This document shows positions 1 to 38,333 of a DNA stretch of 64,000 nucleotides, one piece after another (within the stretch, counting starts at the first letter, position 1; the number at the start of each line of letters is the position of its first letter). A program made the position numbers and the translations under genes. Origin of the DNA: a virus. The DNA lies in the IMG/VR virus record IMGVR_UViG_3300033146_005641, positions 1 to 64,000 of that record; one strand, 5' to 3'. Below the pieces are notes generated by a model. That model was not told where the DNA came from. It made no database searches and saw only the letters and a program-made list of their open reading frames with translations.

Positions 1-483
1 ACCTCTCTAGAAGGGGCTCCTGAGATAGTTAATGGTAGTTTTTACTGTAATGAAAACAATCTAACTTCTCTAGAAGGAGTTCCTAAGGTAGTTAGAGGAG
101 ATTTTAATTGTTCTTACAACGATATATCTTCTCTAGAAGGGGTTCCTGAGTTAGTCGGTGGTATTTTTTATTGTTATAAAAACAATCTAACTTCTCTAGA
201 GGGTTCTCCTAAGGTAGTTAGAGGAGATTTTGATTGCTCTAAAAATAATCTAACTTCTCTAGAAGGGGCTCCTGAGGTAGTCGATGGTATTTTTTATTGT
301 TATAAAAACAATCTAACCTCTCTAGAGGGATCTCCTAAGGTAGTTAATGGTAGTTTTTACTGCTATGATAATCGATTATCTTCCCTAGAGGGACTACCTT
401 ATTCTAAATATGTATACTCTGATTTTAATAAAAATGAAGTTAATGATTACTTAAAATCTAAATTCCCTCAACATTTTATCTAA
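1..483 (+). CDS. Leucine-rich-repeat protein, C-terminal part (5' end outside window)
   Basis: The frame is open from base 1 to TAA at 481-483, so the start lies upstream. It holds about six repeats of about 23 residues with the pattern NLTSLEGxPxVVxGxFYC, a phage leucine-rich-repeat type. A capping segment (LEGLPYSKYVYSDF) and the C-terminal tail KFPQHFI follow. The same architecture recurs at 538-1830 and, broken, at 36939-37628. Such repeats normally form protein-binding solenoids; no partner can be named. The next gene has its own promoter just after this stop. Confidence 0.85.
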   Translation, partial: TSLEGAPEIVNGSFYCNENNLTSLEGVPKVVRGDFNCSYNDISSLEGVPELVGGIFYCYKNNLTSLEGSPKVVRGDFDCSKNNLTSLEGAPEVVDGIFYCYKNNLTSLEGSPKVVNGSFYCYDNRLSSLEGLPYSKYVYSDFNKNEVNDYLKSKFPQHFI

Positions 484-507
484 TTTTAAGTCTCTTTATT
501 CTATAAT
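484..507 (+). promoter_or_regulatory. Early-type promoter
   Basis: TTTTAAG and TATAAT are separated by 11 bases, starting directly after the upstream stop codon. A leader ending in GATAGAAAG precedes the ATG at 538. The same arrangement recurs across the window. Confidence 0.75.
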
Positions 508-537
508 ATGTTAATATAAAGATAGAAGGATAGAAAG

Positions 538-1830
538 ATGAGGTTTAAAGATACTAAATATGGTGATTTAACAGGACAAACCTATGAAGGAGATATTGAT
601 GTAGTTAATTCGGAACTAGCCTCTCTAGAAGGGGCTCCAGAGGTAGTTAAAGGAAGTTTTTACAGCTTTAATAATCAATTAACCTCTCTAGAAGGGGCTC
701 CTGAGATAGTTAATGGTAGTTTTTACTGTAATGAAAACAATCTAACTTCTCTAGAAGGAGTTCCTAAGGTAGTTAGAGGAGATTCTCTAGAAGGTGCTCC
801 AGAGGTAATTGGTGGTAGTTTTTACTGTAATGAAAACAATCTAACTTCTATAGAAGGAGCTCCTAGTGTGGTTGATGGTAATTTTTATTGCTCTAAAAAT
901 AATCTAACTTCTCTAGAGGGGTCTCCTGAGGCGGTCGATGGTAATTTTAATTGTTCTAAAAATAATCTAACTTCTCTAGAAGGTGCTCCAGAGGTCGTTA
1001 AAGGAGATTTTGATTGTTCAGAAAATGATCTAGCTTCTCTAGAAGGAGCTCCTAAGACAGTTAAAGGAGATTTTTATTGTTCTTACAACAATTTAACTTC
1101 TCTAGAGGAAGTTCCGGAGGTAGTCGATGGTAGCTTTTATTGTTCAAACAATCAACTAACTTCTCTAGAGGGAACTCCTGAGGTAGTCGATGGTAGTTTT
1201 GATTGCTCTAAAAATAATCTAACTTCTCTGGAAGGTGTTCCAGAGGTAGTTAATGGTAATGTTAATTGCTCTAAAAATAATCTAACTTCTCTAGAGGGGT
1301 CTCCAGAGGTAATTAAAGGAGGATTTTACTGTAACGAAAACAGTCTAGTCTCTCTAGAAGGATCTCCTGAAGTAGTTAGAGGATATTTTGATTGTTCAAA
1401 CAATCAACTAACTTCTCTAGAGGGGGCTCCTAGGGCGGTTGATGGTAATTTTAATTGCTCTAGCAACAATCTAGCTTCTCTGGAAGGAGCTCCTGAGGTA
1501 GTTAATGGTGTTTTTTATTGTTATAATAATCAATTAGCTTCTCTAGAAGGGTCTCCTGAGGTAATTAGAGGAGATTTTGATTGTTCTTACAATAATTTAA
1601 CTTCTCTAGAAGGTGCTCCTAGGGTGGTCGATGGTAATTTTTATTGCTATGATAATCAATTAACTTCTCTAGAGGGTGCTCCGGAGGTAGTCGATGGTAG
1701 TCTTGACTGTTCTAAAAATAATCTAACTACTCTAGAGGGTCTACCATACTCTAAAAATGTTAGTTCAGATTTTAGTAAATTAGAGGTTGATGAGTATATG
1801 AAGGATGTATTTCCTTATCATTTTATCTAA
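538..1830 (+). CDS. Leucine-rich-repeat protein (complete)
   Basis: This 430-residue protein has a short N-terminal segment (MRFKDTKYGDLTGQTYEGDI) also found on the broken paralogue at 36939. About 17 repeats of about 23 residues follow (LTSLEGAPEVVxGxFxCxxN), then the cap LEGLPYSKNV and the tail VFPYHFI. Near residue 82 a repeat is shortened (VVRGDSLEGAP), a footprint of in-frame deletion between tandem repeats. No signal peptide or enzyme motif is visible. It is probably a protein-interaction solenoid; the Cys at a fixed repeat position suggests a cytoplasmic protein. Function unknown. Confidence 0.85.
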   Translation: MRFKDTKYGDLTGQTYEGDIDVVNSELASLEGAPEVVKGSFYSFNNQLTSLEGAPEIVNGSFYCNENNLTSLEGVPKVVRGDSLEGAPEVIGGSFYCNENNLTSIEGAPSVVDGNFYCSKNNLTSLEGSPEAVDGNFNCSKNNLTSLEGAPEVVKGDFDCSENDLASLEGAPKTVKGDFYCSYNNLTSLEEVPEVVDGSFYCSNNQLTSLEGTPEVVDGSFDCSKNNLTSLEGVPEVVNGNVNCSKNNLTSLEGSPEVIKGGFYCNENSLVSLEGSPEVVRGYFDCSNNQLTSLEGAPRAVDGNFNCSSNNLASLEGAPEVVNGVFYCYNNQLASLEGSPEVIRGDFDCSYNNLTSLEGAPRVVDGNFYCYDNQLTSLEGAPEVVDGSLDCSKNNLTTLEGLPYSKNVSSDFSKLEVDEYMKDVFPYHFI

Positions 1831-1831
1831 C

Positions 1832-1854
1832 TTTAAGTCTTGTTATATTATAAT
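1832..1854 (+). promoter_or_regulatory. Early-type promoter
   Basis: TTTAAGTCTT lies 11 bases upstream of TATAAT, an exact match to the recurring form. It is followed by AGAGAAAAGGATAGAAAG and the ATG of the VWA-domain gene. Confidence 0.8.
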
Positions 1855-1883
1855 ATATTATATAAAGAGAAAAGGATAGAAAG

Positions 1884-3191
1884 ATGAATTCTTTACAAGA
1901 AAAATTTCAAGAAGCCGTAGTAAATTTGATCAGTAATGAAAAATACGTAGATCTTAGCTTTTACGGATTTATTATAGCTAAACTAAATGTTAAATATGCC
2001 AAAAATATGCCTACGGCGGGTGTAAGTTTTAATAAAGATTCATTAAATTATAATTTGATGATTGGACATGCTTTCGATAAATGGAATCTTGAAGAAAGAA
2101 TTGCGGTGCTGATTCACGAATGTAGACATATTTTAGGTCTTCATACAATTCGTAAAGGCGAAAGAGATCATCAATTATTTAATGTAGCTACAGATATTGC
2201 TATTAATCAGTTGATTAGAAACATTCCCGAGGGTGGAGTTTTTCCAGAGACTTTTGATTTTCCCAAAAACGAAAGCGCAGAAACTTATTATGAACTTCTC
2301 AAAAAAGAGAAAGAAAAACAAGAGCAATCTAAAAAAGAGCACGAAGAAAATGAAAAGGATAGTGAGAATGACGAAAATGAAACAGACTCTCAAGAAGATT
2401 CTAATTGTTCTTCTAGCGGATGGAAACCTGATAAAAATTCAAAAGGTGAAACTAAACCTGATTTAACTAGCCTTGATAAAGAGCCTCAAACTTTAGATGT
2501 TCATGATTGGAGCGATGAGGGAAATTCAGATGAGGGATTAGAAGAGCTTCAAAAATCTATAGCCGAAAATATGGTTAGAGAGGCTATAGATCAAACAAGA
2601 GGAAATTTACCACAGGATATTGAAAAAATTCTTGAATTTCTTAAAAAGAAAGCTAAAATTTCCTGGAAAAAAGAGCTTCGTAAAATTATTAGTTCAAGAA
2701 ACGGAGCAAGAATTGAGACTATTAAACGAAAAAATAGAAGATTTCCACACAGAGCAGATCTTAGAGGTAGAAAAGTACAAAAAGATAAACCTGTTGTTTT
2801 TGTAGGTGTAGATACTTCAGGCTCTATGGACGATAGCGATGTACTCAATGGGTTAGTAGAAATTAATGAAGTCATTAAAAATGTAGGTGAGCTTAAAATT
2901 ATCCAAATTGATACTGAGATTAAAGGTATTCAGAGTTTCGATAAAAATAATTTTAAAAGATTTAAAAGAAAAGGTTATGGTGGTACTTATATGGGTGCAT
3001 GTCCCGAATATATTGAAAAAAATAGATTGAAATGTGATGTATTGATAATGATTAGCGATATGTGGATCGAAAATATTCCTTCCGATGATAATTGGAAAAG
3101 TTTTAAAAAATCTGTCCTATGGCTTAGTACTTCAGGCGAAACACCAGAAATTCTAAGACATCATAAAATCTTTAATATCAGAAACGCCTAA
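1884..3191 (+). CDS. DUF2201-type metallopeptidase-like / VWA domain protein
   Basis: The N-terminal half (residues ~1-130) carries VLIHECRHILGLH, a zincin-like HExxH motif typical of DUF2201. A highly charged Glu/Lys/Asp linker spans ~140-215. The C-terminal half is a von Willebrand A domain with the MIDAS start DTSGSM at ~310 and conserved GGTYMG and ISDMW segments. Families of this kind usually pair with MoxR AAA+ ATPases, and one is encoded at 3682-4794. Inference: a chaperone-like pair that remodels or activates a target. It ends without the PQYFI tail. The Arg within the HECRH motif makes peptidase activity uncertain. Confidence 0.8.
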   Translation: MNSLQEKFQEAVVNLISNEKYVDLSFYGFIIAKLNVKYAKNMPTAGVSFNKDSLNYNLMIGHAFDKWNLEERIAVLIHECRHILGLHTIRKGERDHQLFNVATDIAINQLIRNIPEGGVFPETFDFPKNESAETYYELLKKEKEKQEQSKKEHEENEKDSENDENETDSQEDSNCSSSGWKPDKNSKGETKPDLTSLDKEPQTLDVHDWSDEGNSDEGLEELQKSIAENMVREAIDQTRGNLPQDIEKILEFLKKKAKISWKKELRKIISSRNGARIETIKRKNRRFPHRADLRGRKVQKDKPVVFVGVDTSGSMDDSDVLNGLVEINEVIKNVGELKIIQIDTEIKGIQSFDKNNFKRFKRKGYGGTYMGACPEYIEKNRLKCDVLIMISDMWIENIPSDDNWKSFKKSVLWLSTSGETPEILRHHKIFNIRNA

Positions 3192-3229: not shown

Positions 3230-3628
3230 ATGAACCTAAACGAATTTATTGATCTTATTAGATCTAAAAGAACTATTAGTTTTAGAATAGATTCTCTAGA
3301 AGAGTTTAAAGAGATTTCAACTATTATAAACATTTTAGAAGATATAGGTGTAGTAAAGAAAAAATTACATATTGAGAAAAGAGTAGGAGATATAATACTC
3401 GATTCTTATAAAGATGAGAGTAAAGACTATCATAATATTCCTTGTTATGTTTCTTTAATGGCGAATAATGATGAAATTTTAACAGGACATCAGGGTGTAA
3501 ATACAAAAATGGAAAATCCTCTAAATACTAGTAGCTGGCCCGCCAGGCTATATTATGAGACATATAAAAACGCTAAACATTTGAAAGATTATATCGATAT
3601 TAGTAGATATCCTCAATATTTTATATAA
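3230..3628 (+). CDS. Hypothetical accessory protein with PQYFI tail
   Basis: A 132-residue protein with no recognised domain, lying between the VWA gene and its MoxR partner. It opens with an acidic/basic helix (MNLNEFIDLIRSKRTISFRI) and ends SRYPQYFI, the shared C-terminal tail. The RBS is GAGGTAAAG. The next gene has a separate promoter directly after the stop. The position suggests, but does not show, a link to the VWA-MoxR pair. Confidence 0.75.
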   Translation: MNLNEFIDLIRSKRTISFRIDSLEEFKEISTIINILEDIGVVKKKLHIEKRVGDIILDSYKDESKDYHNIPCYVSLMANNDEILTGHQGVNTKMENPLNTSSWPARLYYETYKNAKHLKDYIDISRYPQYFI

Positions 3629-3681: not shown

Positions 3682-4794
3682 ATGTTAATTTCAAAAATGA
3701 AAGATGTATTTCAAGTAGCTCATATGAGTAATGATGCTGTACGTATGGTAGGACTTCACGGTATTGGTAAGTCTCAAGTAGTTGAACAATTTGCTAAAGA
3801 TAATGATTATCATATCGAAACATTATTTTTAAGTCAAAATGAGGTAGCTGATCTTATCGGTATTCCAGATATGAGAGATGGTATTACTTATTGGACAAAG
3901 CCGGTATGGTTAAAACGTATGGAAGATGCTAATCAAGCAGGTAAACATTGTGTATTGTTTCTCGATGAGCTTGCTAGAGCACCGATCGAAGTAAGACAAA
4001 GTGCTTTACAACTAGTTCTTGAAGGACGTATTCATGAACATAATCTACCTATACTCGACGGCTTGAGAACATTGATTGTAGCTGCGGACAATCCGAGTGA
4101 TATCTATCAAACAGATGAGCTTGATGATGCTCTACTTGATCGTTTCGGTAATTATAATGTAACCGTTGATGTAAAAGGTTGGTTGAAATGGTCAAGATTA
4201 AATAATATTAATTCTGTAGTAACCGATTATATCGCCGAGTTTAGTGATAAACTTCATTTCATTCCTGAGGATGAAAATGATAAAGGTGCTACACCTAGAT
4301 CTTGGGCAAAACTTTCAGATTTGATTAATAATGCAGAAAAACTAGGTCTTAGTAAAGGCGTTTTTTCAGAAATGCTTAAAAGTAAACTTGGAGAAACTGT
4401 TGGTTATAGTTTCCTTCATTTCTATAATGATTATGTAAAAATCGTAAAACCTGAAGATATTGAAAAAGCTATTATGAAAAAAGCAGGTAAAGATCTTAAA
4501 AAATCTGAAAAAGAATTTACTAAAATTTCTGAATCAATTCAAAGTATTACGAAAAATATCGAAGCTCTAGCCGCGAGTGAACTTGCTAATAAGATGAAAG
4601 AATTAACTAAAGAAGATGAAAAATGGTATGATATCCTTACTATTTATCTTGATTCATTGAATGTCGAAGTTTTTGTAAGTATTATTAAAACTTGGAAAGA
4701 GGGTGAAGATAGTGAGTTTTATTTCAAATGGTCAGAAACAGTACCAAATTTTTATATTTTCCAAAAAGTTCTAAGAATTAAAGAAGATTCTTAG
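3682..4794 (+). CDS. MoxR-type AAA+ ATPase
   Basis: A 370-residue ATPase. Walker A is GLHGIGKS (~24-31), Walker B is VLFLDELARA (~94-103), sensor 1 is in VAADNPSD and the arginine-finger region is LLDRFG (~150). A helical C-terminal part with a Lys/Glu-rich coiled segment spans ~255-310. The 'LARAP..VRQSALQLVLEGR' stretch is typical of MoxR proteins, which work with VWA-domain partners, and that partner lies just upstream (1884-3191). Inference: an ATP-driven remodelling pair acting on a phage or host complex. It has its own early promoter and no PQYFI tail. Confidence 0.85.
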   Translation: MLISKMKDVFQVAHMSNDAVRMVGLHGIGKSQVVEQFAKDNDYHIETLFLSQNEVADLIGIPDMRDGITYWTKPVWLKRMEDANQAGKHCVLFLDELARAPIEVRQSALQLVLEGRIHEHNLPILDGLRTLIVAADNPSDIYQTDELDDALLDRFGNYNVTVDVKGWLKWSRLNNINSVVTDYIAEFSDKLHFIPEDENDKGATPRSWAKLSDLINNAEKLGLSKGVFSEMLKSKLGETVGYSFLHFYNDYVKIVKPEDIEKAIMKKAGKDLKKSEKEFTKISESIQSITKNIEALAASELANKMKELTKEDEKWYDILTIYLDSLNVEVFVSIIKTWKEGEDSEFYFKWSETVPNFYIFQKVLRIKEDS

Positions 4795-4803: not shown

Positions 4804-5022
4804 ATGATGAGTAATAGTATCGAAGAAACGCTTATTAAGAAGCAGGATATAGTCCGAAAGTTGTATTAAAACCTTAGACGGAACTATAACCTTTCTTCGA
4901 GAAAGTAAAATACTTATAATGTCTATAGAGATATTTTACTTTAAAGATAGAATACAAATAGAATTATTGAAATAGAAAATTCAAAAATATTGAGAGAAAA
5001 ATATCCTCAGTATTATATTTAG
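4804..5022 (+). pseudogene. Decayed small gene retaining a YPQYYI tail
   Basis: An ATG at 4804 opens a frame that stops at 4867-4869 (21 residues). The same frame, after a further stop at 4948-4950, ends with REKYPQYYI and TAG at 5020-5022. The C-terminal tail is therefore preserved without an intact gene in front. Start and tail share a frame, so nonsense mutations rather than shifts appear to have broken it. Sequence error cannot be excluded. Confidence 0.5.
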
Positions 5023-5031: not shown

Positions 5032-5253
5032 GTGACAGATTTTTTTGATATTCCTGCTAAAATAGGAGATAAAATATTATTCGTTAATCAAGATGAGTTT
5101 TGCACGGGAGCTATTCTGGAAAAGATACTTCACTTCGATAATATCAAAGTCTTGGTTAACATTGACAATGAAAAGAAATCTGTATTAGTACATAATAAAA
5201 ACTTTATTATTATAAATGATATTATAAAAAATCATCCTCAATATTTTATGTAG
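5032..5253 (+). CDS. Hypothetical small protein with PQYFM tail
   Basis: 73 residues from a GTG start. It looks like a small beta-rich domain (IGDKILFVNQDEFCTGAIL) and ends KNHPQYFM. It resembles in outline the protein at 14997-15236 (VGDFILYEY...GEIID), which suggests a distant small beta-barrel relationship. Function unknown. Confidence 0.65.
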   Translation: MTDFFDIPAKIGDKILFVNQDEFCTGAILEKILHFDNIKVLVNIDNEKKSVLVHNKNFIIINDIIKNHPQYFM

Positions 5254-11202: not shown

Positions 11203-11268
11203 ATGGTTTATTTTATCCTTATAGAGTATATACATATCATAAAAAGAAATCCTCAAAGATATATTTAA
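11203..11268 (+). CDS. Very small peptide ending NPQRYI
   Basis: 21 residues from ATG 11203 (MVYFILIEYIHIIKRNPQRYI). It is a hydrophobic helix followed by a variant of the shared tail. The stop TAA overlaps ATG 11268 of the next gene (TAATG). It could be a remnant of a longer tailed gene or a leader peptide. Confidence 0.4.
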   Translation: MVYFILIEYIHIIKRNPQRYI

Positions 11269-11501
11269 TGACTAGAATTAGAAAATTTATTACGAGAGAA
11301 AAAGCGGATTCTATGAGCTTTTATATCCTATTAGATTTATTTGATAGGTTTCCTGAATTAGAAAATAATTATGTGATCTTAGATGATATAGCTTATAATT
11401 ATAAAGGACATCCTATAATAGTTTTAGATTATTATTTTGATGATGATTTAGAACTAAATGAAGAAGAGGCTAAAGCGAAGTTACCTCATCTTTTTATCTA
11501 A
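11268..11501 (+). CDS. Hypothetical small protein with PHLFI tail
   Basis: 77 residues, acidic (DDIAYNYKGHPIIVLDYYFD), ending AKLPHLFI, a variant of the shared tail. Coupled to the preceding peptide by TAATG; followed directly by an early promoter. Function unknown. Confidence 0.6.
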   Translation: MTRIRKFITREKADSMSFYILLDLFDRFPELENNYVILDDIAYNYKGHPIIVLDYYFDDDLELNEEEAKAKLPHLFI

Positions 11502-11559: not shown

Positions 11560-12372
11560 ATGAATATTTGTTTACAATGCGGAAAAAATTATAAACGTTC
11601 TCATACGTGTAAAAAACCAGAAACTTTTAAAAATAAATTAAAAGATATAGAAAACTATAAAGAGTTCTGGAATATATTAGAAAATCACTTAAAAGACCTA
11701 AACATTAAAATAGAATTTGATGAATATCCTACAATTTTTTCAGATAACGCTTATGATTCTTATGAATATAAAGGACCTGGGTGGAGTGGAAGATTTGTAG
11801 GAAAGATAGAATCTGAATACGACATTTCTTTCTCTAATGTTTTTGGATGGTTTGATTCTTTATTAGAGGGAGGTGTAGAGACAGGTTCAGGATGCTCGGG
11901 AGAGAGATTTAGTATGAGCAATTCTCGAATAGATATGAGATTGTTTCCTAAGATGTATAAAGAATGGGAGAGAGAAAGTAATTATTTTTATAATGAAAGA
12001 GAACAAATTTCAGATAATATAAAGAATGTTATAAAAGATAGAAAAAGAAAATCTCATCATTATGCTGAGTATAGTGAAGAATATAGAGAGTTATATTGGA
12101 AGGAAAAGGAAATTAGAGAATGTCTTGTAGAGATTTCAAGAGTAAAAGATTTAATTTGGGATAAAAAAGTAAAAGAATTTCAATCAAATAATCCTATAGA
12201 TCTTCCAGATCCGAAAAGTGTTTCAGAAGCCGAATATTTTGAATTAAAGAAATTAAACTATACTATTCCTGAAATGGAATATGAAGATTTACAACACAAA
12301 GTGAGAAAAATAGTCGAGAGACTTAATAAATTAAAAGATTATATAAAAAATCACCCTCAATATTTTATCTGA
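11560..12372 (+). CDS. Hypothetical protein with zinc knuckle and PQYFI tail
   Basis: 270 residues. An N-terminal CLQCGKNYKRSHTC suggests a zinc-binding knuckle. The middle holds a Gly/Trp-rich segment (YKGPGWSGRFVGKI), then long charged helices (~140-260) likely forming a coiled coil. It ends KNHPQYFI. This is one of the larger tail-bearing proteins, so the tail is not limited to tiny genes. Function unknown. Confidence 0.7.
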   Translation: MNICLQCGKNYKRSHTCKKPETFKNKLKDIENYKEFWNILENHLKDLNIKIEFDEYPTIFSDNAYDSYEYKGPGWSGRFVGKIESEYDISFSNVFGWFDSLLEGGVETGSGCSGERFSMSNSRIDMRLFPKMYKEWERESNYFYNEREQISDNIKNVIKDRKRKSHHYAEYSEEYRELYWKEKEIRECLVEISRVKDLIWDKKVKEFQSNNPIDLPDPKSVSEAEYFELKKLNYTIPEMEYEDLQHKVRKIVERLNKLKDYIKNHPQYFI

Positions 12373-12396: not shown

Positions 12397-12502
12397 ATAC
12401 TATATAAAGAGAGAAGAAGATATTTATTCTGCAGATTGTGTGGATACTATTATTTTGCTCTTAATTATAGTCTCTAAAGATTAGATAGGAGTGATTGTTT
12501 AT

Positions 12503-12790
12503 ATGAAAAAAGTAGAAAAATTTAATGAAATAGATGAAGAAAATGTTATAGTTATTAAAAATATGTGTCACGCTATACCTGAAAGTCATATGTTTGAATA
12601 TACCGTATCTTATGAAATGAGAAATGATGAAGAAATTTTTGAAATATTGGGTATAGTTACTACTTCTCGTTCATATACTACCTTAAAAAATTTAAGAAAC
12701 AATATCAAAATTACTTTATATGAATATGATTTAGATTGGTGCGAAATGTTCGAGGATAACAAATCTGAATATCCTCAATATTTTATATAG
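12503..12790 (+). CDS. Hypothetical protein with PQYFI tail
   Basis: 95 residues from ATG 12503. An in-frame GTG at 12491 sits on top of the AGGAG and is less likely. Acidic, alpha/beta (VEKFNEIDEENVIVIKNM). Ends SEYPQYFI. No promoter follows the stop; the next gene starts 15 bases on after its own RBS. Confidence 0.65.
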   Translation: MKKVEKFNEIDEENVIVIKNMCHAIPESHMFEYTVSYEMRNDEEIFEILGIVTTSRSYTTLKNLRNNIKITLYEYDLDWCEMFEDNKSEYPQYFI

Positions 12791-12805: not shown

Positions 12806-13162
12806 ATGTATAGAGCTTCAGAGTTTATTAATAAAGATAATATGATTAGAATTCTTAAAGATAATCTACCTCTATTCTTATTGAGAGATAGTGAAATTAT
12901 AGAAATTAAACATGTTTCTAAAAAATTTTATAGAGATAGAGCACCTTTAGAGACAGATAAAGACCATCCTGAATTTCCCGAAGATACCGGAAAATATGCT
13001 ATAGATACTAGGAAAGATGTATTGTTTGAAAACAGTATTGAGGCTGAGGCGTATAAAAGAATAGAGTATTCTAAACATATTATGAAAAATTTTGATTCTA
13101 TTAGGAGAGAATATTTAAAGATGAAGAAATTTAAGGAGGAGAATCCACAATATTTTATATGA
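12806..13162 (+). CDS. Hypothetical protein with PQYFI tail
   Basis: 118 residues (MYRASEFINKDNMIRILKDN), mixed charge, ending KEENPQYFI. RBS GGAGG. Directly followed by another gene with no promoter between, showing the tail is kept even where no promoter cassette overlaps it. Confidence 0.65.
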   Translation: MYRASEFINKDNMIRILKDNLPLFLLRDSEIIEIKHVSKKFYRDRAPLETDKDHPEFPEDTGKYAIDTRKDVLFENSIEAEAYKRIEYSKHIMKNFDSIRREYLKMKKFKEENPQYFI

Positions 13163-14269: not shown

Positions 14270-14768
14270 AACATATTTCACGTCGGACTGGCATTTAGGT
14301 CATAAAAATATTTGCAACTACAGACCTAAATTTAAAACACCTGAAGAAAATGATCAACATTTTATTGATGAATTTAATAAGATTATTCGAAAAAGAGATA
14401 CAGTTTATTTTCTTGGTGATATAGCTTTTACAGAAGAAGCTTTAGAAAAACTAAAAGATCTTAATTACTGTAATAAGAAAATCTTATATTTAGGTAATCA
14501 TGATTATTTATCTACCGAAAAATATTTAGAAGTATTTGATGAGGTTTATGGATTAAGATCTTGGAATTCTTACTGGTTAAGTCATTGTCCTATTCATCCA
14601 CAGGAATTAAGAAATCGTAAAGGAAATATTCACGGACATCTTCATGCTAGCGTCTTAGAAGATATTGATAAAAGATATTTTGATGTTTCACCAGAAAAAA
14701 ATAATTATTCTTTAGTAGATTATGAGATTATTAGGGGGTATTTTGAGGAGTCAGAGAATGATAGTTAA
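14262..14768 (+). CDS. Calcineurin-like metallophosphoesterase
   Basis: 168 residues with the full set of metal-binding motifs: DxH in SDWHLGH (~8-14), GDI (~52), GNHD (~79-82), H in LSHCPIH (~107) and GHLH (~125-128). It matches the small phosphoesterase type seen in many phages. Probable hydrolysis of a phosphodiester or nucleotide; substrate unknown. It lies in a run of overlapping genes (next start at 14758). Confidence 0.85.
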   Translation: MSKTYFTSDWHLGHKNICNYRPKFKTPEENDQHFIDEFNKIIRKRDTVYFLGDIAFTEEALEKLKDLNYCNKKILYLGNHDYLSTEKYLEVFDEVYGLRSWNSYWLSHCPIHPQELRNRKGNIHGHLHASVLEDIDKRYFDVSPEKNNYSLVDYEIIRGYFEESENDS

Positions 14769-15000
14769 AAATGTAGATATGAACTATAATAATTTAGACG
14801 GTAATTCTTACAGCTATTATCCTCTAGAGATACATATTTGTTTAGGCTTATCGTTAGATGAGATGAAAGCTATAGGCACTTCATCTCCGGGAGAGATTAT
14901 GCAAGACGTTATTAAGATTTATTTTAAGAGTATAGGTTTTGATAGAGATGTATCTATAAATGAAATATTAAAAAAAGCATATCCACAGGATTTTATATGA
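14758..15000 (+). CDS. Hypothetical protein with PQDFI tail
   Basis: 80 residues from ATG 14758, chosen for the GAGGAG upstream. Ends KKAYPQDFI, a tail variant encoded by CCACAGGATTTTATATGA, so the codons differ from the common CCTCAATATTTTATATAA. Overlaps the next start by ATGA. Confidence 0.6.
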   Translation: MIVKNVDMNYNNLDGNSYSYYPLEIHICLGLSLDEMKAIGTSSPGEIMQDVIKIYFKSIGFDRDVSINEILKKAYPQDFI

Positions 15001-15236
15001 TTAGAATAGAAGTAGGAGATTTTATACTATATGAATATGATGAAAACAAATATATCGGTGAGATTATAGATATTAAAAAACATATTCTATTAGTTAATCC
15101 GGAGATTAGCCTCGATAAGGAAGAATTCTATACGGATACTATAGAGGTAAAGAGGTCACGGGTATTGAAAAAGCTTGAGGGTGTTAAAAGTGTATATAAT
15201 CAAGTAAAAGAAAAATTTCCATATTACACTATTTAA
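14997..15236 (+). CDS. Hypothetical small beta protein with FPYYTI tail
   Basis: 79 residues (MIRIEVGDFILYEYDENKYI) with a predicted small beta-barrel start, ending KEKFPYYTI, a diverged tail. Similar in outline to 5032-5253. The stop overlaps the promoter of nrdA. Confidence 0.6.
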   Translation: MIRIEVGDFILYEYDENKYIGEIIDIKKHILLVNPEISLDKEEFYTDTIEVKRSRVLKKLEGVKSVYNQVKEKFPYYTI

Positions 15237-19560: not shown

Positions 19561-19805
19561 TGTCTTTAGCTGTTATTGGTGGACTGCTAATGATCGTAGG
19601 ATCTTTTACTATGTATAGGGGTTTTATATTTTATAGTGTATTTTCTTATCTTGTAGCTGATCTTATATGGGCTGTTCTAGCATTTCAATCTGGAGATATG
19701 TTTGGAGGAATTACAATAGTATTGGGTACTATTTTTGGTATATTAACGTTTTTAAAAATGCATAAAGGCGAATTTGTAAAACATTTAAGGATAGATTATG
19801 AATAA
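19560..19805 (+). CDS. Membrane protein, about three helices
   Basis: 81 residues with hydrophobic segments at ~4-22, ~25-42 and ~48-66 and a basic C-terminus (KMHKGEFVKHLRI). Coupled to both neighbours by overlaps. Function unknown. Confidence 0.6.
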   Translation: MSLAVIGGLLMIVGSFTMYRGFIFYSVFSYLVADLIWAVLAFQSGDMFGGITIVLGTIFGILTFLKMHKGEFVKHLRIDYE

Positions 19806-19977
19806 ATTAAACGTTTTTAGTGATTTAACTATAGAAGATATTAGAAAACACTCTCCTCAACAAATTAAAAATTTTGCAGAAGTACTAAAGGAATATAAAA
19901 ACTTAAAAAATAATTTTGATGTTGTTTTAGTTAATATTAAAATTATGGAAGAAAACTATCCATATCTTTTTATCTGA
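19798..19977 (+). CDS. Small protein with PYLFI tail
   Basis: 59 residues (MNKLNVFSDLTIEDIRKHSP...). Helical, ending EENYPYLFI, a variant of the shared tail. Starts inside the membrane protein gene. A weak promoter-like GGCTTC...TATTATGTAGTATG follows. Confidence 0.55.
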   Translation: MNKLNVFSDLTIEDIRKHSPQQIKNFAEVLKEYKNLKNNFDVVLVNIKIMEENYPYLFI

Positions 19978-23456: not shown

Positions 23457-23753
23457 ATGAATGCAAAGACGATTTATATAAGAAAATATCAAACACCTAT
23501 GAAAATCACCACGTATTTTAAAATAATTAAGAAATGGGGACCTTTTAGATGGATTTTACATAAAGAGGTTGATTTACATATAGAACATATGTCGTATGAA
23601 TATACACCTATAAAAATAAGAGAAGTACATGAAGTTGTTAAGAATAGAATAGATGATTTTGTTTGGAGACTAATTTTTAAAAAAAGTTCAGAATTTGTTA
23701 AAGAATATACTATAAAAGAATTTGAGAGAGAATATGGAGCATATTTAATATGA
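23457..23753 (+). CDS. Hypothetical protein
   Basis: 98 residues, basic and aromatic (MKITTYFKIIKKWGPFRWIL). Ends FEREYGAYLI, which is reminiscent of but does not match the shared tail. Overlaps the next start by ATGA. Function unknown. Confidence 0.55.
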   Translation: MNAKTIYIRKYQTPMKITTYFKIIKKWGPFRWILHKEVDLHIEHMSYEYTPIKIREVHEVVKNRIDDFVWRLIFKKSSEFVKEYTIKEFEREYGAYLI

Positions 23754-24088
23754 TTATAGAAGAACATAAAGGAATGAAAATATTTAGAAACGTCTCTGAA
23801 TCTACTACACCCAAAGATATTAAAATGATATCTATCGATGAAAAAGATATCTCAAATTTTTTATGTATATATAAAGGCACTACGTTTGACGTATATAATA
23901 ATGATCCTATGAAATCTAAAGAAATTGAGTATTATTATATTTATTTAGATGATAGTGACGAATTCGGATTAAGATTTGATAATATAGAAATAGCTAAGTG
24001 GTATTTTGAGAAATTAAGAGAGAGTCATATACCGCATTTTAAAACTAAAGAAACTATTGAAAAAGATAAACCTAGCTTTTTTATATAG
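23750..24088 (+). CDS. Hypothetical protein with PSFFI tail
   Basis: 112 residues, alpha/beta (MIIEEHKGMKIFRNVSESTT), ending EKDKPSFFI, a variant of the shared tail. Coupled to the preceding gene. No family recognised. Confidence 0.6.
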   Translation: MIIEEHKGMKIFRNVSESTTPKDIKMISIDEKDISNFLCIYKGTTFDVYNNDPMKSKEIEYYYIYLDDSDEFGLRFDNIEIAKWYFEKLRESHIPHFKTKETIEKDKPSFFI

Positions 24089-24103: not shown

Positions 24104-24331
24104 AATGGAATTACGAATGGGCGATTTATTATTTAGGGAGGTCCTGTTGGTCTAAAGATATAAGAAGACTAGAGAAATATATTATCTATACAGTTCATCC
24201 TATTTATTATAAATGTATTATTTTAGATGAAGAGGATAGATATAATGATAGATATAAACAAGTTAAAAATTGGAGGAGATTTTCTTACTAAATCACAAAC
24301 AAAAGTAAAATTTCCTCAATATTTTATATAA
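24104..24331 (+). pseudogene. Frameshifted small gene retaining a FPQYFI tail
   Basis: ATG 24104 with RBS AGGAG reads MELRMGDLLF and soon stops. A shifted frame continues GRSCWSKDIRRLEKYIIYTV...NWRRF. A second shift gives GGDFLTKSQTKVKFPQYFI and stops at 24329-24331. Two frame changes are needed to read it through. The tail itself is intact. Confidence 0.5.
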
Positions 24332-34465: not shown

Positions 34466-34475
34466 TTTTAAATAT

Positions 34476-34552: not shown

Positions 34553-34555
34553 AAT

Positions 34556-34787: not shown

Positions 34788-34862
34788 GTGACTATAGTAC
34801 AACGGTTAGTACACTCGTCTGTGGAACGAGGTATTGGAGTTCGATTCTCCATAGTCACACCA
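34788..34862 (+). tRNA. tRNA-His (GUG)
   Basis: Acceptor GTGACTA/TAGTCAC with an extra G just before position 1, as usual for His. Anticodon stem CTCGT/ACGAG with loop CTGTGGA, encoded CCA. Confidence 0.93.
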
Positions 34863-34865
34863 AAT

Positions 34866-34942
34866 GCCGCCTTATCTCAGCCGGATAGAGCAGAGAACTT
34901 CTAATTCTCGGGTCACACGTTCAAATCGTGTAGATGGTACCA
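34866..34942 (+). tRNA. tRNA-Arg (UCU)
   Basis: Anticodon stem GAGAA/TTCTC with loop CTTCTAA, T-loop TTCAAAT, encoded CCA. The acceptor GCCGCCT/AGATGGT has one mismatch and two G:U pairs. Confidence 0.85.
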
Positions 34943-35297
34943 TAGAAAATTTTAATAGGTCTTCATATTAGGTTGAAGATCTACAAAGTTTTCTTATTTT
35001 TGATGAAAAATAAGTGGTGAGTCCTAATAGGCAATCAGCGCCTCTCAATCATATAATATCTGTATGTAAAACATCGACTTAGTATGATAAGCGGGAACCT
35101 AAAATAGTTTTATATTTGGCTTCAAACAAATATAAATTAAAAGTAATTCTATTGAAACTACTGACAATCTATGACAAACAGGATAAAACACTCCATTGTA
35201 TCTCTGTGATAGAAGGAAGCGGGAAAATCCTTACAAATCCTGTAGTTAAGTTATTAAAAGACCTTGAAAGAGGTCGCTTAACTTTAAGATATATAAT
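34943..35297 (+). other. 355-base stretch, probably structured RNA, unassigned
   Basis: No convincing gene. It contains GTTAAG/CTTAAC around an inner GACCT/AGGTC hairpin (about 35243-35283), TATATTTG/CAAATATA (about 35111-35134) and two AGCGGGAA motifs. An ATG-free frame opens late (35116) but reads through the next tRNA-like gene, so I do not call it coding. A diverged self-splicing intron or tRNA debris are both possible; neither is shown. Confidence 0.4.
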
Positions 35298-35370
35298 GGC
35301 TAGATTCAATGGAGAAAACTCAGATCTCATAAGTCAGAGAAGTGCGGGTCGGTGCCGCATCTAGTCACCA
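35298..35370 (+). tRNA. Degenerate tRNA-Met (CAU) candidate
   Basis: Acceptor GGCTAGA/TCTAGTC with discriminator A and encoded CCA. The anticodon loop CTCATAA is in the right place. The T-stem TGCGG/CCGCA abuts the acceptor, but its loop is GTCGGTG instead of TTCRANN, the D-arm is reduced and the anticodon stem has an A:A mismatch. The 73-base geometry fits a tRNA. It could be the elongator tRNA-Met or a dying copy. Confidence 0.55.
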
Positions 35371-35386
35371 TCGGAAGGAAAAATAA

Positions 35387-35674
35387 ATGCTAAAAGATGT
35401 CAAGAATGTAGAAGATTGTGAGATTGGAAACTATCTTTTCATTTTATTTCGACGTTCTAGGGGAAGATTTTCAGAAGCGTTTATTAGTAAAGTGATAGAT
35501 GATAACATATTTAAAAATACCCTAGTTCTGAAAGATATTAAGAATTTTACAAATCCTGAAGATATTAATCAAGAATGGTATTGTAATTTTAATTCTGAAT
35601 TTAAAGTTATTAAAAAAATAAAGAAAGAAAATATTGAAAATTTTGAAGAAAAGTTTCCTCAATATTTTATATAA
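35387..35674 (+). CDS. Hypothetical protein with PQYFI tail, within the tRNA cluster
   Basis: 95 residues (RBS GGAAGGAAA). Alpha/beta, ending FEEKFPQYFI. It lies between tRNA genes; tRNA-Cys starts two bases after its stop. Function unknown. Confidence 0.65.
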   Translation: MLKDVKNVEDCEIGNYLFILFRRSRGRFSEAFISKVIDDNIFKNTLVLKDIKNFTNPEDINQEWYCNFNSEFKVIKKIKKENIENFEEKFPQYFI

Positions 35675-35676
35675 AC

Positions 35677-35751
35677 GTCGCAATGTCTGAATGGTAAAGA
35701 ACCTGATTGCAAACCGGGTATTAGTGAGTTCGATTCTCACTTGCGACTCCA
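35677..35751 (+). tRNA. tRNA-Cys (GCA)
   Basis: Acceptor GTCGCAA/TTGCGAC, anticodon loop TTGCAAA (closing pair A:C mismatched), T-stem GTGAG/CTCAC, discriminator T, encoded CCA. Starts two bases after a stop codon. Confidence 0.9.
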
Positions 35752-35756
35752 TAGAC

Positions 35757-35833
35757 GTCTCGATAGTTCAACTGGATAGAATATTCGGCTACGGACCGAA
35801 AGGCTGAGGGTTCGAATCCTTCTCGGGACACCA
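35757..35833 (+). tRNA. tRNA-Arg (ACG)
   Basis: Acceptor GTCTCGA/TCGGGAC, anticodon stem TTCGG/CCGAA with loop CTACGGA (A34 normally becomes inosine), encoded CCA. Last tRNA of the cluster. Confidence 0.93.
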
Positions 35834-35841
35834 AAGGGAAA

Positions 35842-36018
35842 ATGAAAGCTTTAGACTTAGATTCTTTAGAAAGAGAAGTAGTTATCTTAAGATCATATCT
35901 ATCTTTTAGAGAATGCGTTTTGCAAAACGCAAAACGCAAAACGCAAAACAAACAGGATACTTATAGAATTAGTTTTAAAAAGAAGAAAGTTAAAAAATTT
36001 CAAATATATAAAGAATAA
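35842..36018 (+). CDS. Hypothetical small basic protein with tandem-repeat core
   Basis: 58 residues. The middle (LQNAKRKTQNKQ) is encoded by four tandem copies of GCAAAAC (35922-35949). The C-terminal end is Lys-rich (ISFKKKKVKKFQIYKE). It abuts the RNase H-like gene by two bases. Confidence 0.45.
   Translation: MKALDLDSLEREVVILRSYLSFRECVLQNAKRKTQNKQDTYRISFKKKKVKKFQIYKE
35922..35949 (+). repeat. Heptanucleotide tandem repeat (GCAAAAC)x4
   Basis: Four exact tandem copies, preceded by GTTTTGC, so the start can also fold on itself. As the unit is not a multiple of three, changes in copy number would shift the reading frame of the gene it lies in. Confidence 0.9.
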
Positions 36019-36020
36019 AA

Positions 36021-36488
36021 ATGAAAAAAAGAGAAAGAAAAGTTCATACGATGGATGTAGAGGAAGTGAGGAAGTTTATATTAGATTATCCAACAGCTAA
36101 AATTTATCTCGGAGCCGATTCTCAAAGAATCCGAAAGAAAAGAGTAAAATTTGTCGTTGTTGTTGTTGTTCACTATGAGGGTCATTGCGGAGCTAAAATA
36201 TTTTATGAAACATCTTATGATCACATTACAGATGCTAAACTTTCAAGACCCTTCAATAGAATGATGAAGGAAGTTCAGCTTTTAACAGAATTATATACTC
36301 AATTAGAAGATATTTTATGGAATAGAGATTTTGAAATTCATATCGATGTTAATCCTGAAAAAGGTACCGGTTCTAATGTTGCTTATCAGGCAGCTAAAGG
36401 TGTTATTTGGGGTATGATAGGTGTAGAGCCTGTATGTAAACCTGAGGCATGGTGTGCCTCAACTGTGGCGGATAAATATTCGAAATAA
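36021..36488 (+). CDS. DUF458 / YkuK-type RNase H-like protein
   Basis: 155 residues. The YLGADSQRIRKKRVKFVVVVVVH segment (~30-52), then the IHIDVNPEKGTGSN acidic stretch (~108-121) and AWCASTVADKYSK end follow the DUF458 (YkuK) family, which has an RNase H-like fold. Asp33, Asp110 and Asp150 are candidate metal ligands. Lying next to the tRNA cluster it might process structured RNA; that is inference. Confidence 0.75.
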   Translation: MKKRERKVHTMDVEEVRKFILDYPTAKIYLGADSQRIRKKRVKFVVVVVVHYEGHCGAKIFYETSYDHITDAKLSRPFNRMMKEVQLLTELYTQLEDILWNRDFEIHIDVNPEKGTGSNVAYQAAKGVIWGMIGVEPVCKPEAWCASTVADKYSK

Positions 36489-36490
36489 GT

Positions 36491-36706
36491 ATGAAAAAGA
36501 GTATATACCTATACGTTATTAATAATAAACTCTATGAGGTTTACTATAAATATAATAAAAATATTACTTATAGATATGTAAAAGAGTATGGATCACGAGA
36601 TAAACCTATAAGATATTATGATTATGGAAGAAAAAAATCATTAGGTATGGCCCGGGTTCTTACTAAAGAACAAGCTAGAGAAAAATTTCCTCAATATTTT
36701 ATTTGA
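36491..36706 (+). CDS. Hypothetical small protein with PQYFI tail
   Basis: 71 residues, very Tyr/Lys-rich (YLYVINNKLYEVYYKYNKNI), ending REKFPQYFI. Three bases after the previous stop; a promoter follows directly. Confidence 0.6.
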   Translation: MKKSIYLYVINNKLYEVYYKYNKNITYRYVKEYGSRDKPIRYYDYGRKKSLGMARVLTKEQAREKFPQYFI

Positions 36707-36707
36707 T

Positions 36708-36730
36708 TTTAAGTTTTATTACACTATAAT
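36708..36730 (+). promoter_or_regulatory. Early-type promoter
   Basis: TTTAAGTTTT, TATAAT at 11-base spacing, followed by the conserved leader AGAGAAAAGGATAGAAAG. Confidence 0.75.
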
Positions 36731-36759
36731 ATATTATATAAAGAGAAAAGGATAGAAAG

Positions 36760-36927
36760 ATGAAAACGAGATTTAACAATGCTGAATATTATGATTTTAT
36801 ATATGGTGAAGATATTGTAATAACTTCATTAGAAGGATATCCATATTCTGAAGATATTAATTCAGATTTCAACGAAAACGATAGTAATTAATATTTTAAA
36901 TCTAAAATTAATCAATATTTTATTTGA
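36760..36927 (+). pseudogene. LRR gene reduced to its ends, with in-frame stop
   Basis: ATG 36760 reads a short N-terminus, then SLEGYPYSEDINSDFNENDSN and TAA (36889-36891). The same frame continues YFKSKINQYFI to TGA 36925-36927. This is the cap and tail of the LRR family without its repeats, plus a nonsense mutation. Confidence 0.6.
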
Positions 36928-36938
36928 TTTATAGAAAG

Positions 36939-37628
36939 ATGAAGTTCAGAGACACTAAATATGGTGATTTAACGGGACAAACTTATGAAGGAGATATTGA
37001 TGTAAGCGAATTAAGTCTTACTTCTCTAGAGGGGCTCCGGAGACAGTTAATGGTAATTTTTATTGTACTCATAACAATCTAACTTCTCTAAAAGGATCTC
37101 CTAAGGTAGTTAATGGTAATTTTAGTTGCTCAGATAACAATTTAACTTCTCTAGAGGGGGCTCCAGAGACAGTTAATGGTAGTTTTAATTGTTTAAACAA
37201 TCAACTAACCTCTCTAGAGGGGGTTCCAGAGGTAGTTAACGGAAGCTTTTATTGTTCAAACAATCGATTAACATCTCTAGAAGGGGTTCCGAAGGTAATC
37301 GATGGTAGTTTTTATTGCTCTTACAACAATTTAACTTCTCTAGAGGGGGCTCCGGAGACAGTTAATGGTAATTTTTATTGTACTCCATAACAATCTAGCC
37401 TCTCTAGAGGGATCTCTGAGAGAAGCTAATGGTAATTTTAATTGTTCTTACAACGATCTAGCTTCTCTAGAGGAGGTTCCGGAGGTAGTTATTGGTAATT
37501 TTTATTGTACTCATAACAATCTAGCCTCTCTAGAGGGATTACCTTATTCTAAATATGTATACTCTGATTTTAGTGATAAAGAAGTTAATGATTATTTAAA
37601 ATCTAAATTTCCTCAATATTTTATATAA
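36939..37628 (+). pseudogene. LRR paralogue broken by two compensating frameshifts
   Basis: ATG 36939 gives the family N-terminus (MKFRDTKYGDLTGQTYEGDI). At about 37030 the repeat core reads GAGGGGCTCC where other copies have GAGGGGGCTCC, a lost G that shifts the frame. At about 37384 TACTCCATAAC has an extra C relative to TACTCATAAC and restores the frame. About nine repeats, cap and KSKFPQYFI are otherwise intact. Real decay, slippage or sequencing error. Confidence 0.65.
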
Positions 37629-37629
37629 C

Positions 37630-37652
37630 TTTAAGGTATATTACACTATAAT
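37630..37652 (+). promoter_or_regulatory. Early-type promoter
   Basis: TTTAAG-N11-TATAAT after the LRR pseudogene. The leader is cut short (AAAGAGAGG) before ATG 37671. The nearest stable product downstream is the tmRNA. Confidence 0.7.
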
Positions 37653-37670
37653 ATATTATATAAAGAGAGG

Positions 37671-37801
37671 ATGAAACCTTTCAATATTATATTTTGGAAT
37701 ATCGTTAGTAGTCTTTTTAGGTCAGATAATTGTTTCTATTTGACTTGGAGTAAAAGTTGTTAATGAGGGTATGAAATAACTATAAATATTAAGCGTTGGT
37801 T
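37671..37801 (+). pseudogene. Decayed small membrane protein gene
   Basis: ATG 37671 has RBS AGAGAGG but gives only 30 codons with no clear fold. A neighbouring frame reads GISLVVFLGQIIVSI, then TGA, then LGVKVVNEGMK and a stop, a typical single-helix membrane protein. A shift plus a nonsense change would explain it. Confidence 0.35.
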
Positions 37802-37841
37802 CGTCAGTGACGACGCTATATAAAAGAACTGCTGACGTTAT

Positions 37842-38129
37842 GGGGTTGATAGGTTTCGATTAGATTCTTATTAATTTTCAAAATCAAGCGGTTTAGAGTA
37901 ACCTAAAAGCTCACCAAAAAATAACTGTAAACAACACAGACTATACGCCAGCGGCGCAAGTAGCCTAATACTACAGGGTTATATAGTACCTAGTAACAGA
38001 AACTATATAAAGTGTCTACTTAAAAATTCAAAGCGTTATGATTCGTTAAAAATCTATCCTTAAAGCTTGTATAAATTTTAATTATAAACGGGATTTAAGA
38101 CTGGAGTTCGATTCTCCACAACTCCACCA
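37842..38129 (+). ncRNA. ssrA: Phage-encoded tmRNA
   Basis: 288 bases. 5' GGGGTTG pairs with 3' CAACTCC including a G3-U70 pair (alanine identity). AGGTTTCGAT, the tmRNA D-loop hallmark, follows. The 3' end has a T-arm GGAG-TTCGATT-CTCC and encoded ACCA. The resume frame at 37927 (GTA) reads VNNTDYTPAAQVA, stop TAA 37966-37968. The start of the tag matches the Helicobacter tag VNNTDYAP as I know it. The end, QVA, departs from the usual KAA/LAA degron. Confidence 0.9.
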
Positions 38130-38289
38130 ATTAAGAAAAAAAATATGAAAAAACAGATTTAAAAATCAACTCAGACGTACTCGCTTTAAGAAGATCTCTT
38201 ATGAATAGATTTTAGAATGTTTTTATCTATTATAACTGAAGATAATTTCTACGGTTAGAAATATATTTTTAAAAAATATGACTACTAAA

Positions 38290-38333
38290 AAATTCAAGAT
38301 TATTTTAATAATCGTCCTCAATATTTCATTTAA
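38290..38333 (+). pseudogene. Orphan PQYFI tail remnant
   Basis: A frame without a start reads KIQDYFNNRPQYFI and stops at TAA 38331-38333, just upstream of the capsid-like gene's late promoter. Only the tail of a lost gene remains. Confidence 0.5.

What the first reader, a model, noticed from the sequence alone, without database searches (positions are those of the whole stretch)
1..38333. A shared C-terminal tail (PQYFI) on about 19 unrelated accessory proteins
Seen directly: proteins or remnants ending at 483 (PQHFI), 1830 (PYHFI), 3628, 5022 (PQYYI), 5253 (PQYFM), 11268 (PQRYI), 11501 (PHLFI), 12372, 12790, 13162, 15000 (PQDFI), 15236 (PYYTI), 19977 (PYLFI), 24088 (PSFFI), 24331, 35674, 36706, 36927 (NQYFI), 37628 and 38333 all stop within or right after P-Q-Y-F-I, although their other residues are unrelated. 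Pro is nearly always five residues before the last residue, which is Ile or Met. Codons vary (CCT/CCA, CAA/CAG, TAT/TAC) and the tail is kept where no promoter cassette overlaps it (12790, 13162, 15000), so peptide-level selection is likely. NrdAB, ligase, polymerase, helicase, virion proteins and the 5.3-11.2 kb island lack it. Inference: a short address or binding tag recognised by one common partner (clamp-type hub, membrane, protease or a phage compartment). I know of no described system of this kind.
Basis: partly seen in the sequence, partly recalled or inferred. Interest (0 to 1): 0.95.

Follow-up and report, generated by a model that had tools for sequence, protein, structure and literature searches.

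The report
Phage-wide tail tag on unrelated proteins
In a group of large bacterial viruses, about 9% to 34% of the predicted proteins, mostly small and unrelated to each other, end in the same five-residue tail, which looks like a docking tag read by a protein-remodelling machine that these viruses also encode, and I found no earlier description of it.

Summary
Over the whole 183-kb T4-like phage, 34 gene models end in P-x-x-F-I or close to it (Pro at -5: 37 seen, 6.8 expected, p=1e-16). The same tail, mostly as [YHF]-P-E-x-[FL]-I, occurs in 74-76 proteins of Vibrio phages SRILMA and phiKT1024 (p~1e-53, 1e-56) and in many IMG/VR contigs; 331 tagged proteins fall into 214 unrelated clusters. 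T4, a Campylobacter phage and other controls lack it. Selection is on the peptide: in 63 SRILMA/phiKT1024 orthologue pairs Pro and Glu never change (body 81% identical) while the Pro codon differs in 17. The best candidate reader is a phage-encoded pair, a MoxR AAA+ ATPase and a DUF2201 zincin-VWA protein (window 3682-4794 and 1884-3191): the only two families found in all six large tagged lineages. All tagged genomes with a DUF2201 gene lie in one clade of it, and tagged genes cluster beside the pair (p<0.0002). Binding is inferred, not shown; whether tagged proteins are clients or adaptors is open.

The parts
1..483 (+). tagged protein, cut by the window start, ends ...KSKFPQHFI
538..1830 (+). 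leucine-rich-repeat protein, 430 aa, ends FPYHFI; one of 8 tagged LRR paralogues in the genome
1884..3191 (+). candidate tag reader: DUF2201 protein, zincin metallopeptidase domain (HECRH...H) plus VWA domain with MIDAS (DTSGS), untagged
3230..3628 (+). tagged 132-aa protein lying between the two candidate reader genes, ends YPQYFI
3682..4794 (+). candidate tag reader: MoxR-type AAA+ ATPase (AAA_5), untagged
5005..5022 (+). remnant tail PQYYI without an intact gene upstream
5032..5253 (+). tagged 73-aa protein, ends HPQYFM
11251..11268 (+). remnant tail PQRYI without an intact gene upstream
11268..11501 (+). tagged 77-aa protein, ends LPHLFI
11560..12372 (+). tagged 270-aa protein with cysteine-rich N-terminus (family shared with SRILMA, phiKT1024, G019), ends HPQYFI
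12491..12790 (+). tagged 99-aa protein, ends YPQYFI, no promoter behind it
12806..13162 (+). tagged 118-aa protein, ends NPQYFI, no promoter behind it
14722..15000 (+). tagged 92-aa protein, ends YPQDFI
14997..15236 (+). tagged 79-aa protein, ends FPYYTI; in a 15-member family tagged in 8 genomes
19798..19977 (+). tagged 59-aa protein, ends YPYLFI
23750..24088 (+). tagged 112-aa protein, ends KPSFFI
24230..24331 (+). remnant ending FPQYFI (frame open for 34 codons)
35387..35674 (+). tagged 95-aa protein, ends FPQYFI, followed by a tRNA gene
36491..36706 (+). tagged 71-aa protein, ends FPQYFI
36910..36927 (+). remnant tail NQYFI
37365..37628 (+). LRR fragment, 87 aa, ends FPQYFI
38316..38333 (+). 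remnant tail PQYFI just upstream of the capsid gene

Best explanation
The tail is a C-terminal docking tag, consensus [YHF]-P-E-x-[FL]-I with a free carboxylate (in the window phage's lineage Glu is replaced by Gln, Tyr or His). It is fixed in the genes of unrelated accessory proteins and is most likely read by a phage-encoded machine made of a MoxR-type AAA+ ATPase and a DUF2201 protein, whose zincin peptidase domain is joined to a VWA domain with a metal site (MIDAS). Shown: the tag, selection on the peptide, its phage-wide use, its restriction to genomes with one clade of this machine wherever the machine gene could be seen, and clustering of tagged genes next to the machine's genes. Inferred: that the machine binds the tag, and that it then unfolds or cuts tagged proteins (clients), or is steered by them to other targets (adaptors). 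I favour clients (about 0.3) over adaptors (about 0.2). A MoxR-VWA machine that depends on an exact C-terminus has a precedent in the rubisco activase CbbQO.
For: (1) Peptide-level tag: -5P enrichment p=1e-16 (window phage), 1e-53 (SRILMA), 1e-56 (phiKT1024), 3e-37 (G008), 1e-17 (G015), and none in T4, Campylobacter phage, N4, LUZ7, SBP1, AR9, Moorella or AD45 at this threshold; 63/63 Pro and 63/63 Glu kept among orthologues, Pro codon changed in 17; 331 tagged proteins in 214 clusters. (2) Of all gene families compared, only MoxR and DUF2201 occur in all six large tagged lineages A-F; both absent from T4 and the Campylobacter phage by HMM. (3) Among 37 IMG/VR loci with DUF2201, tags occur near relatives with at least 34% identity and essentially not below 30%; the tree puts every tagged genome that has the gene in one clade of 22 (99/96). 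(4) Tagged genes are enriched next to the pair: 19 of 57 direct neighbours against 7.7 by circular shift, p<0.0002; L206 has DUF2201 flanked by 8 tagged genes of 9; L177's only strict tag lies between DUF2201 and MoxR. (5) A nucleotidyltransferase-like family, often beside MoxR, keeps a tag in all 9 distinct members from tag-clade phages, including sparsely tagged AD45 (APELLL) and L189 (YPEIMF), and lacks it in Moorella phage, outside the clade. (6) The tag dialect is uniform within a genome and differs between phages, as expected if each phage brings its own reader. (7) CbbQO needs rubisco's exact C-terminus, and its VWA MIDAS needs a substrate carboxylate (PMC4660213).
Against: No binding, degradation or co-folding was tested. 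Phages with more distant MoxR/DUF2201 pairs (N4, LUZ7, SBP1, AR9, Moorella) have no tag, so the pair works without it there. Some contigs inside the tag clade show few or no tags (L180, L185, L186; AD45 has three). In the eight sparsely tagged loci alone, distance to the pair was not significantly short (p=0.11). In G015 the catalytic Glu of HExxH is Asn although 25 proteins are tagged, which argues against proteolysis as the universal outcome. Basic DUF2201 residues lost in the phages without tag Glu are no more frequent than other losses (p=0.40). The association could partly reflect shared descent and shared accessory gene regions.
Confidence: 0.5

Rival explanations
1. The tag is real and peptide-level but is read by something else: a host factor such as a cellular AAA+ protease, RNA polymerase or a membrane protein, or another phage protein. 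The MoxR/DUF2201 link is then shared ancestry of accessory gene regions.
For: Other families are shared by several tagged lineages (one in BCDEF, one in ABDEF). The pair occurs without tags in other phages. Host proteases commonly read C-termini (general knowledge).
Against: Only the pair covers all six lineages. The tag is confined to one DUF2201 clade and tagged genes cluster beside the pair under a control that keeps tag clustering. Different dialects in different phages argue against one conserved host reader.
Confidence: 0.3
2. Sliding-clamp hub: the tail is a clamp-binding peptide that tethers accessory proteins to DNA-bound clamp, as the C-termini of T4 gp43, gp55 and gp33 do.
For: T4 proteins share interchangeable C-terminal clamp motifs (PMC2988020), the closest known principle in a T4-like phage.
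Against: In these phages polymerase ends -EIDEW or -SLDDW and the small gene after the gp55-like gene ends -IEEW or -DEW, unlike the tag. T4 and the Campylobacter phage have no such tag. No tagged protein of SRILMA or the window phage has a T4 or Campylobacter-phage homologue (0 of 76 and 0 of 33).
Confidence: 0.04
3. A nascent-peptide signal: the last five residues slow translation termination or couple it to the next gene, so the tag acts on the ribosome.
For: TGA stops are over-represented behind tags (p=0.03 to 8e-9 in five of seven genomes) and most tagged genes are followed closely by another gene in SRILMA, G004, G008 and G015.
Against: The TGA excess comes from ATGA overlaps with the next start codon and vanishes without them in all but the window phage. 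All three stops are used. Four to eight tagged genes per genome have no same-strand gene within 150 nt downstream. It would not explain confinement to phages with one clade of the machine.
Confidence: 0.06
4. By-product of recombination cassettes: the nucleotide block CCTCAATATTTTAT plus promoter was copied between genes and the peptide has no function.
For: In the window phage 19 of 34 tagged genes are followed by the same promoter against 7 of 236 untagged, and CCT CAA and TTT are the dominant tag codons.
Against: Relatives keep the peptide with varied codons and without the promoter; orthologues show synonymous but not amino-acid change at Pro and Glu.
Confidence: 0.01

Closest known systems
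C-terminal sliding-clamp-binding motif of T4 gp43, gp55 and gp33
   Same: Short hydrophobic C-terminal peptide shared by otherwise unrelated proteins of a T4-like phage, docking to one hub (PMC2988020)
   Different: Three proteins of replication and late transcription, not 34 to 76 accessory proteins; different residues; the tagged phages have their own separate clamp-like tail
CbbQO rubisco activase and other MoxR-VWA machines (RavA-ViaA, NorQD, midasin MIDAS)
   Same: AAA+ MoxR ring with a VWA partner whose MIDAS binds a carboxylate; CbbQO requires the exact C-terminal residues of its client (PMC4660213)
   Different: Known machines serve one or a few clients without a common tag; the phage VWA protein carries a zincin peptidase domain and has no significant sequence match to a solved structure
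ssrA tag / C-terminal degrons of AAA+ proteases
   Same: Free hydrophobic C-terminus as recognition signal for an AAA+ machine (general knowledge)
   Different: Written in the genes and not added by tmRNA; residues unlike -LAA; this phage's own tmRNA tag is VNNTDYTPAAQVA
LPXTG/sortase and PEP-CTERM/exosortase sorting signals
   Same: A short C-terminal signal on many unrelated proteins that tracks with one enzyme in the same genome (general knowledge)
   Different: Those are cell-surface signals with a membrane segment; the tails examined here show no hydrophobic segment before the tag and sit mostly on small phage proteins
MoxR-vWA-centred conflict systems (Kaur et al. 2020, PMC7159879)
   Same: MoxR-vWA pair with a variable set of associated proteins; peptidase domains sometimes fused to the vWA protein
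   Different: Bacterial systems with VMAP or other third components; no common C-terminal tag is described in the passages read

Membership tests
T4-type C-terminal clamp-binding motif | tail shared with DNA polymerase and gp55/gp33 homologues | tested here: not met
   Polymerase ends -EIDEW/-SLDDW, gene after the gp55-like gene ends -IEEW/-DEW; none tagged
T4-type C-terminal clamp-binding motif | binding to gp45 | not testable with these tools
   needs purified proteins
DUF2201 metallopeptidase-VWA family (window 1884-3191) | Pfam DUF2201_N and DUF2201 above curated cut-offs | tested here: met
   PF13203 58 bits (cut-off 23.2), PF09967 37.8 bits (26.4)
DUF2201 metallopeptidase-VWA family (window 1884-3191) | HExxH zinc motif and MIDAS residues | tested here: met
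   H78 E79 H82 H87 and D310 S312 S314 T368 D392 conserved; G015 has HNxxH
MoxR AAA+ ATPase (window 3682-4794) | AAA_5 domain with P-loop | tested here: met
   PF07728 44.6 bits, cut-off 22; GLHGIGKS
C-terminal degron of an AAA+ protease | conserved free C-terminal residues on unrelated proteins | tested here: met
C-terminal degron of an AAA+ protease | tag-dependent degradation by the protease | not testable with these tools
   needs a reporter assay; the G015 machine lacks the catalytic Glu
ssrA/tmRNA tagging | tag identical to the tmRNA-encoded peptide | tested here: not met
   phage tmRNA tag is VNNTDYTPAAQVA
PEP-CTERM/LPXTG-like sorting signal | hydrophobic membrane segment before the C-terminus | tested here: not met
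   residues -16 to -7 of tagged proteins are mildly enriched in E, K and Q and not in hydrophobic residues
Recombination-cassette artefact | nucleotide, not peptide, conservation | tested here: not met

The most novel reading that the evidence does not exclude
The tagged proteins are interchangeable adaptors: each small, fast-changing accessory protein binds a different (host) target with its body and plugs into one phage AAA+/zincin-VWA machine with its tail, so that the phage carries a library of targeting subunits for one remodelling or degrading engine. The eight tagged LRR paralogues and the lack of T4 homologues among tagged proteins fit this, but nothing here tests it.
Probability: 0.2. 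Interest if true: 0.97.

Novelty: categorically new. Interest (0 to 1): 0.9.

Why it matters
Between about 9% and 34% of the predicted proteins of the large tagged genomes and contigs carry one genetically encoded C-terminal address. Most tagged proteins examined have no known function; the tag groups them by presumed partner and gives a handle for studying them. If the MoxR/DUF2201 pair reads it, these phages encode their own tag-directed protein-handling system, which would give a function to a widespread phage gene pair and to many small hypothetical proteins, and possibly a portable tag-machine pair for controlling proteins in bacteria.

Tried and rejected
Close relatives of the polymerase and capsid protein in IMG/VR: none found. 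Clamp hub: rejected on polymerase and gp33-position ends. tmRNA-type tag: rejected. Cassette by-product: rejected. Stop-codon or termination signal: TGA bias explained by ATGA overlaps except in the window phage. A tag in other carriers of the pair (N4, LUZ7, SBP1, AR9, Moorella): no C-terminal motif of comparable kind found. Distance test restricted to eight sparsely tagged loci: p=0.11. Charge co-variation between tag Glu and basic DUF2201 residues: six candidate positions but no more than background (p=0.40). Family searches of tagged proteins gave almost nothing except LRR and nucleotidyltransferase-like hits. A first profile search with the full DUF2201 alignment failed for lack of conserved stretches. 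Literature searches for a shared phage C-terminal tag found nothing, and find-in-text checks of two papers on the phiKT1024 group show no 'C-terminal', 'motif' or 'MoxR'.
Full report
1. Observation. Fifteen are ends of open genes and five are remnant tails without an intact gene upstream. The window is the first 64 kb of a 183,351-bp IMG/VR virus record with a T4-type family-B DNA polymerase, whose best hits in the phage collection are Campylobacter phages at 28%, and with 23 tRNA genes and a tmRNA gene. In the whole genome 34 gene models match the tail pattern. Counting from the C-terminus, Pro at -5 is found in 37 of 258 proteins (6.8 expected, p=1e-16), and F(-2) with P(-5) in 32 (0.34 expected, p=3e-52). 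Core genes such as NrdA, NrdB, ligase and polymerase lack it.

2. The tail in other phages. A search with the tagged LRR protein led to Vibrio phages VB_VaC_SRILMA and phiKT1024. In them the tail reads [YHF]-P-E-x-[FL]-I and is commoner still: 76 of 340 and 74 of 328 gene models, Pro at -5 in 89 against about 10 expected (p~1e-53 and 1e-56). The codon-level pattern gives 42 and 39 sites on the coding strand, none on the other strand and none in the reversed-pattern control. Degenerate-pattern scans of IMG/VR found further carriers: G004 (224 kb), G008 (103 kb), G011 (83 kb), G015 (52 kb), G019 (26 kb), and G007 (44 kb), a close relative of the window phage. Per-position enrichment is significant in all of these. 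It is absent from T4 and Campylobacter phage NCTC12673, and KVP40, S-PM2, HTVC008M, ICP1, phiKZ, phiW-14 and Aeh1 show at most one pattern match each.

3. It is a peptide signal. 331 tagged proteins fall into 214 BLAST clusters after the last ten residues are removed. Between SRILMA and phiKT1024, 63 orthologue pairs are tagged in both: Pro is identical in 63/63 and Glu in 63/63, against 81% identity elsewhere, while the Pro codon differs in 17 of 63 (27%, against 21% elsewhere). All four Pro codons are used. In the nucleotidyltransferase-like family (21-32% identity to the window phage's member) the only invariant residue of the C-terminal third is the tag Pro. Each phage has its own dialect: Q, Y or H at -4 in the window phage and G007, E nearly everywhere else; final Leu is frequent in G015. 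In the window phage 19 of 34 tagged genes are followed by a promoter (TTTTAAG-N-TATAATA) against 7 of 236 untagged, but that promoter occurs once in SRILMA and not in G008. The recombination-cassette reading therefore explains, at most, how tagged genes move in this phage.

4. Which proteins carry it. Tagged proteins are short (medians 84 to 112 aa against 131 to 169 aa for untagged), occur in runs along the genome and, in SRILMA and the window phage, never have a T4 or Campylobacter-phage homologue (0/76 in SRILMA against 61/234 untagged, p=6.6e-9; 0/33 in the window phage against 49/209, p=6.6e-4). Families that could be recognised are LRR proteins (8 tagged copies in the window phage) and a nucleotidyltransferase-like family.

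5. Candidate reader. I compared gene content of the tagged records, grouped into lineages A-F and the 26-kb fragment G019. Only two families occur in all six lineages A-F: the MoxR AAA+ ATPase (window 3682-4794) and the DUF2201 zincin-VWA protein (window 1884-3191). Neither is found in T4 or the Campylobacter phage. Both keep their motifs: HExxHxxxxH and MIDAS in DUF2201, P-loop in MoxR. AlphaFold gives a fairly confident DUF2201 model (mean pLDDT 78.9) whose VWA part matches integrin I domains, and more weakly the midasin MIDAS and NorQD, in the PDB.

6. Association tests. Of 37 IMG/VR loci with DUF2201 relatives, tags occur near those at 34% identity or more and essentially not below 30%. 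In the tree all tagged genomes that have the gene fall in one clade of 22 sequences (99/96), which also holds AD45 and a few loci without tags in the stretch read. Tagged genes are enriched beside the pair: 19 of 57 direct neighbours against 7.7 expected under circular shifts that keep tag clustering (p<0.0002), and 41 of 145 within three genes against 20.2. A 4-kb contig in an archaeal MAG, probably viral, has DUF2201 flanked by eight tagged genes out of nine. In L177 the only strict tag in 20 kb lies between DUF2201 and MoxR. The nucleotidyltransferase-like family, often beside MoxR, is tagged in all nine distinct members from tag-clade phages and untagged in Moorella phage, which has a pair outside the clade. 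A narrower distance test on eight sparsely tagged loci gave p=0.11.

7. Mechanism. CbbQO, a MoxR-VWA machine, needs the exact C-terminal residues of rubisco, loses activity if one residue is added or removed there, and needs a client carboxylate that its VWA MIDAS is thought to bind (PMC4660213). By analogy I propose that the phage machine reads the free tail of tagged proteins. What happens next is inferred: unfolding or cutting of tagged proteins (clients), or use of tagged proteins as target-specific adaptors. In a model of the nucleotidyltransferase-like family the tail lies outside the confident core (pLDDT about 52 at the end against mostly 80-95 in the core; six sequences, weak).

8. 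Other readings. The clamp hub is unlikely: T4's clamp-binding C-termini are shared by gp43, gp55 and gp33 (PMC2988020), and in these phages the polymerase and the gp33-position protein carry a different tail, -EIDEW/-SLDDW and -IEEW/-DEW. A termination signal is unlikely: the TGA excess disappears when ATGA overlaps are removed in all but the window phage. An unknown host or phage partner remains possible, with the MoxR/DUF2201 link as inherited linkage.

9. Novelty. Searches of the held paper library found no description of such a tag, and find-in-text checks of two papers on the phiKT1024 group show no mention; subscription papers were not searchable. The principle of a shared C-terminal docking peptide is known; a phage-wide set of up to 76 unrelated tagged proteins with a candidate MoxR/zincin-VWA reader is, as far as I could test, not.

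Noticed in passing
window 31854; G000 78158; SRILMA 13233 and 86313: A second C-terminal class: DNA polymerase (-EIDEW, -SLDDW) and a small gene after the gp55-like gene (-IEEW, -DEW) end in an acidic tail plus Trp; Trp at -1 is enriched in SRILMA and phiKT1024 (15 against 3 expected). Probably this group's clamp-binding tail.
   Followed up: partly
window phage genome, 42 forward sites, e.g. 484, 1831, 3629, 5254, 11502, 12373: A repeated promoter unit [CT]TTTA[AG]G-N-TATAATA, preferentially right behind tagged genes; looks like exchangeable gene cassettes.
   Followed up: partly
window 32180-38129: 23 tRNA genes and a tmRNA gene (tag VNNTDYTPAAQVA) in a phage.
   Followed up: no
window 538-1830, 36760-37628 and elsewhere in the genome: At least eight LRR paralogues, some broken, with a tag; relatives in Vibrio phages and G007.
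   Followed up: partly
window 25275-28099: Gene run that reads like 7-deazaguanine (queuosine-type) synthesis genes, including a QueE-like radical SAM protein; judged from the sequence only.
   Followed up: no
L122 7930-9153 (G015) and L175: DUF2201 with HNMLH in place of HEMLH, so probably no peptidase activity, in a heavily tagged phage.
   Followed up: partly
L115 15280-16470 (G011): MoxR gene split into two overlapping open frames (73779-74075 and 74068-74970 of the contig).
   Followed up: no
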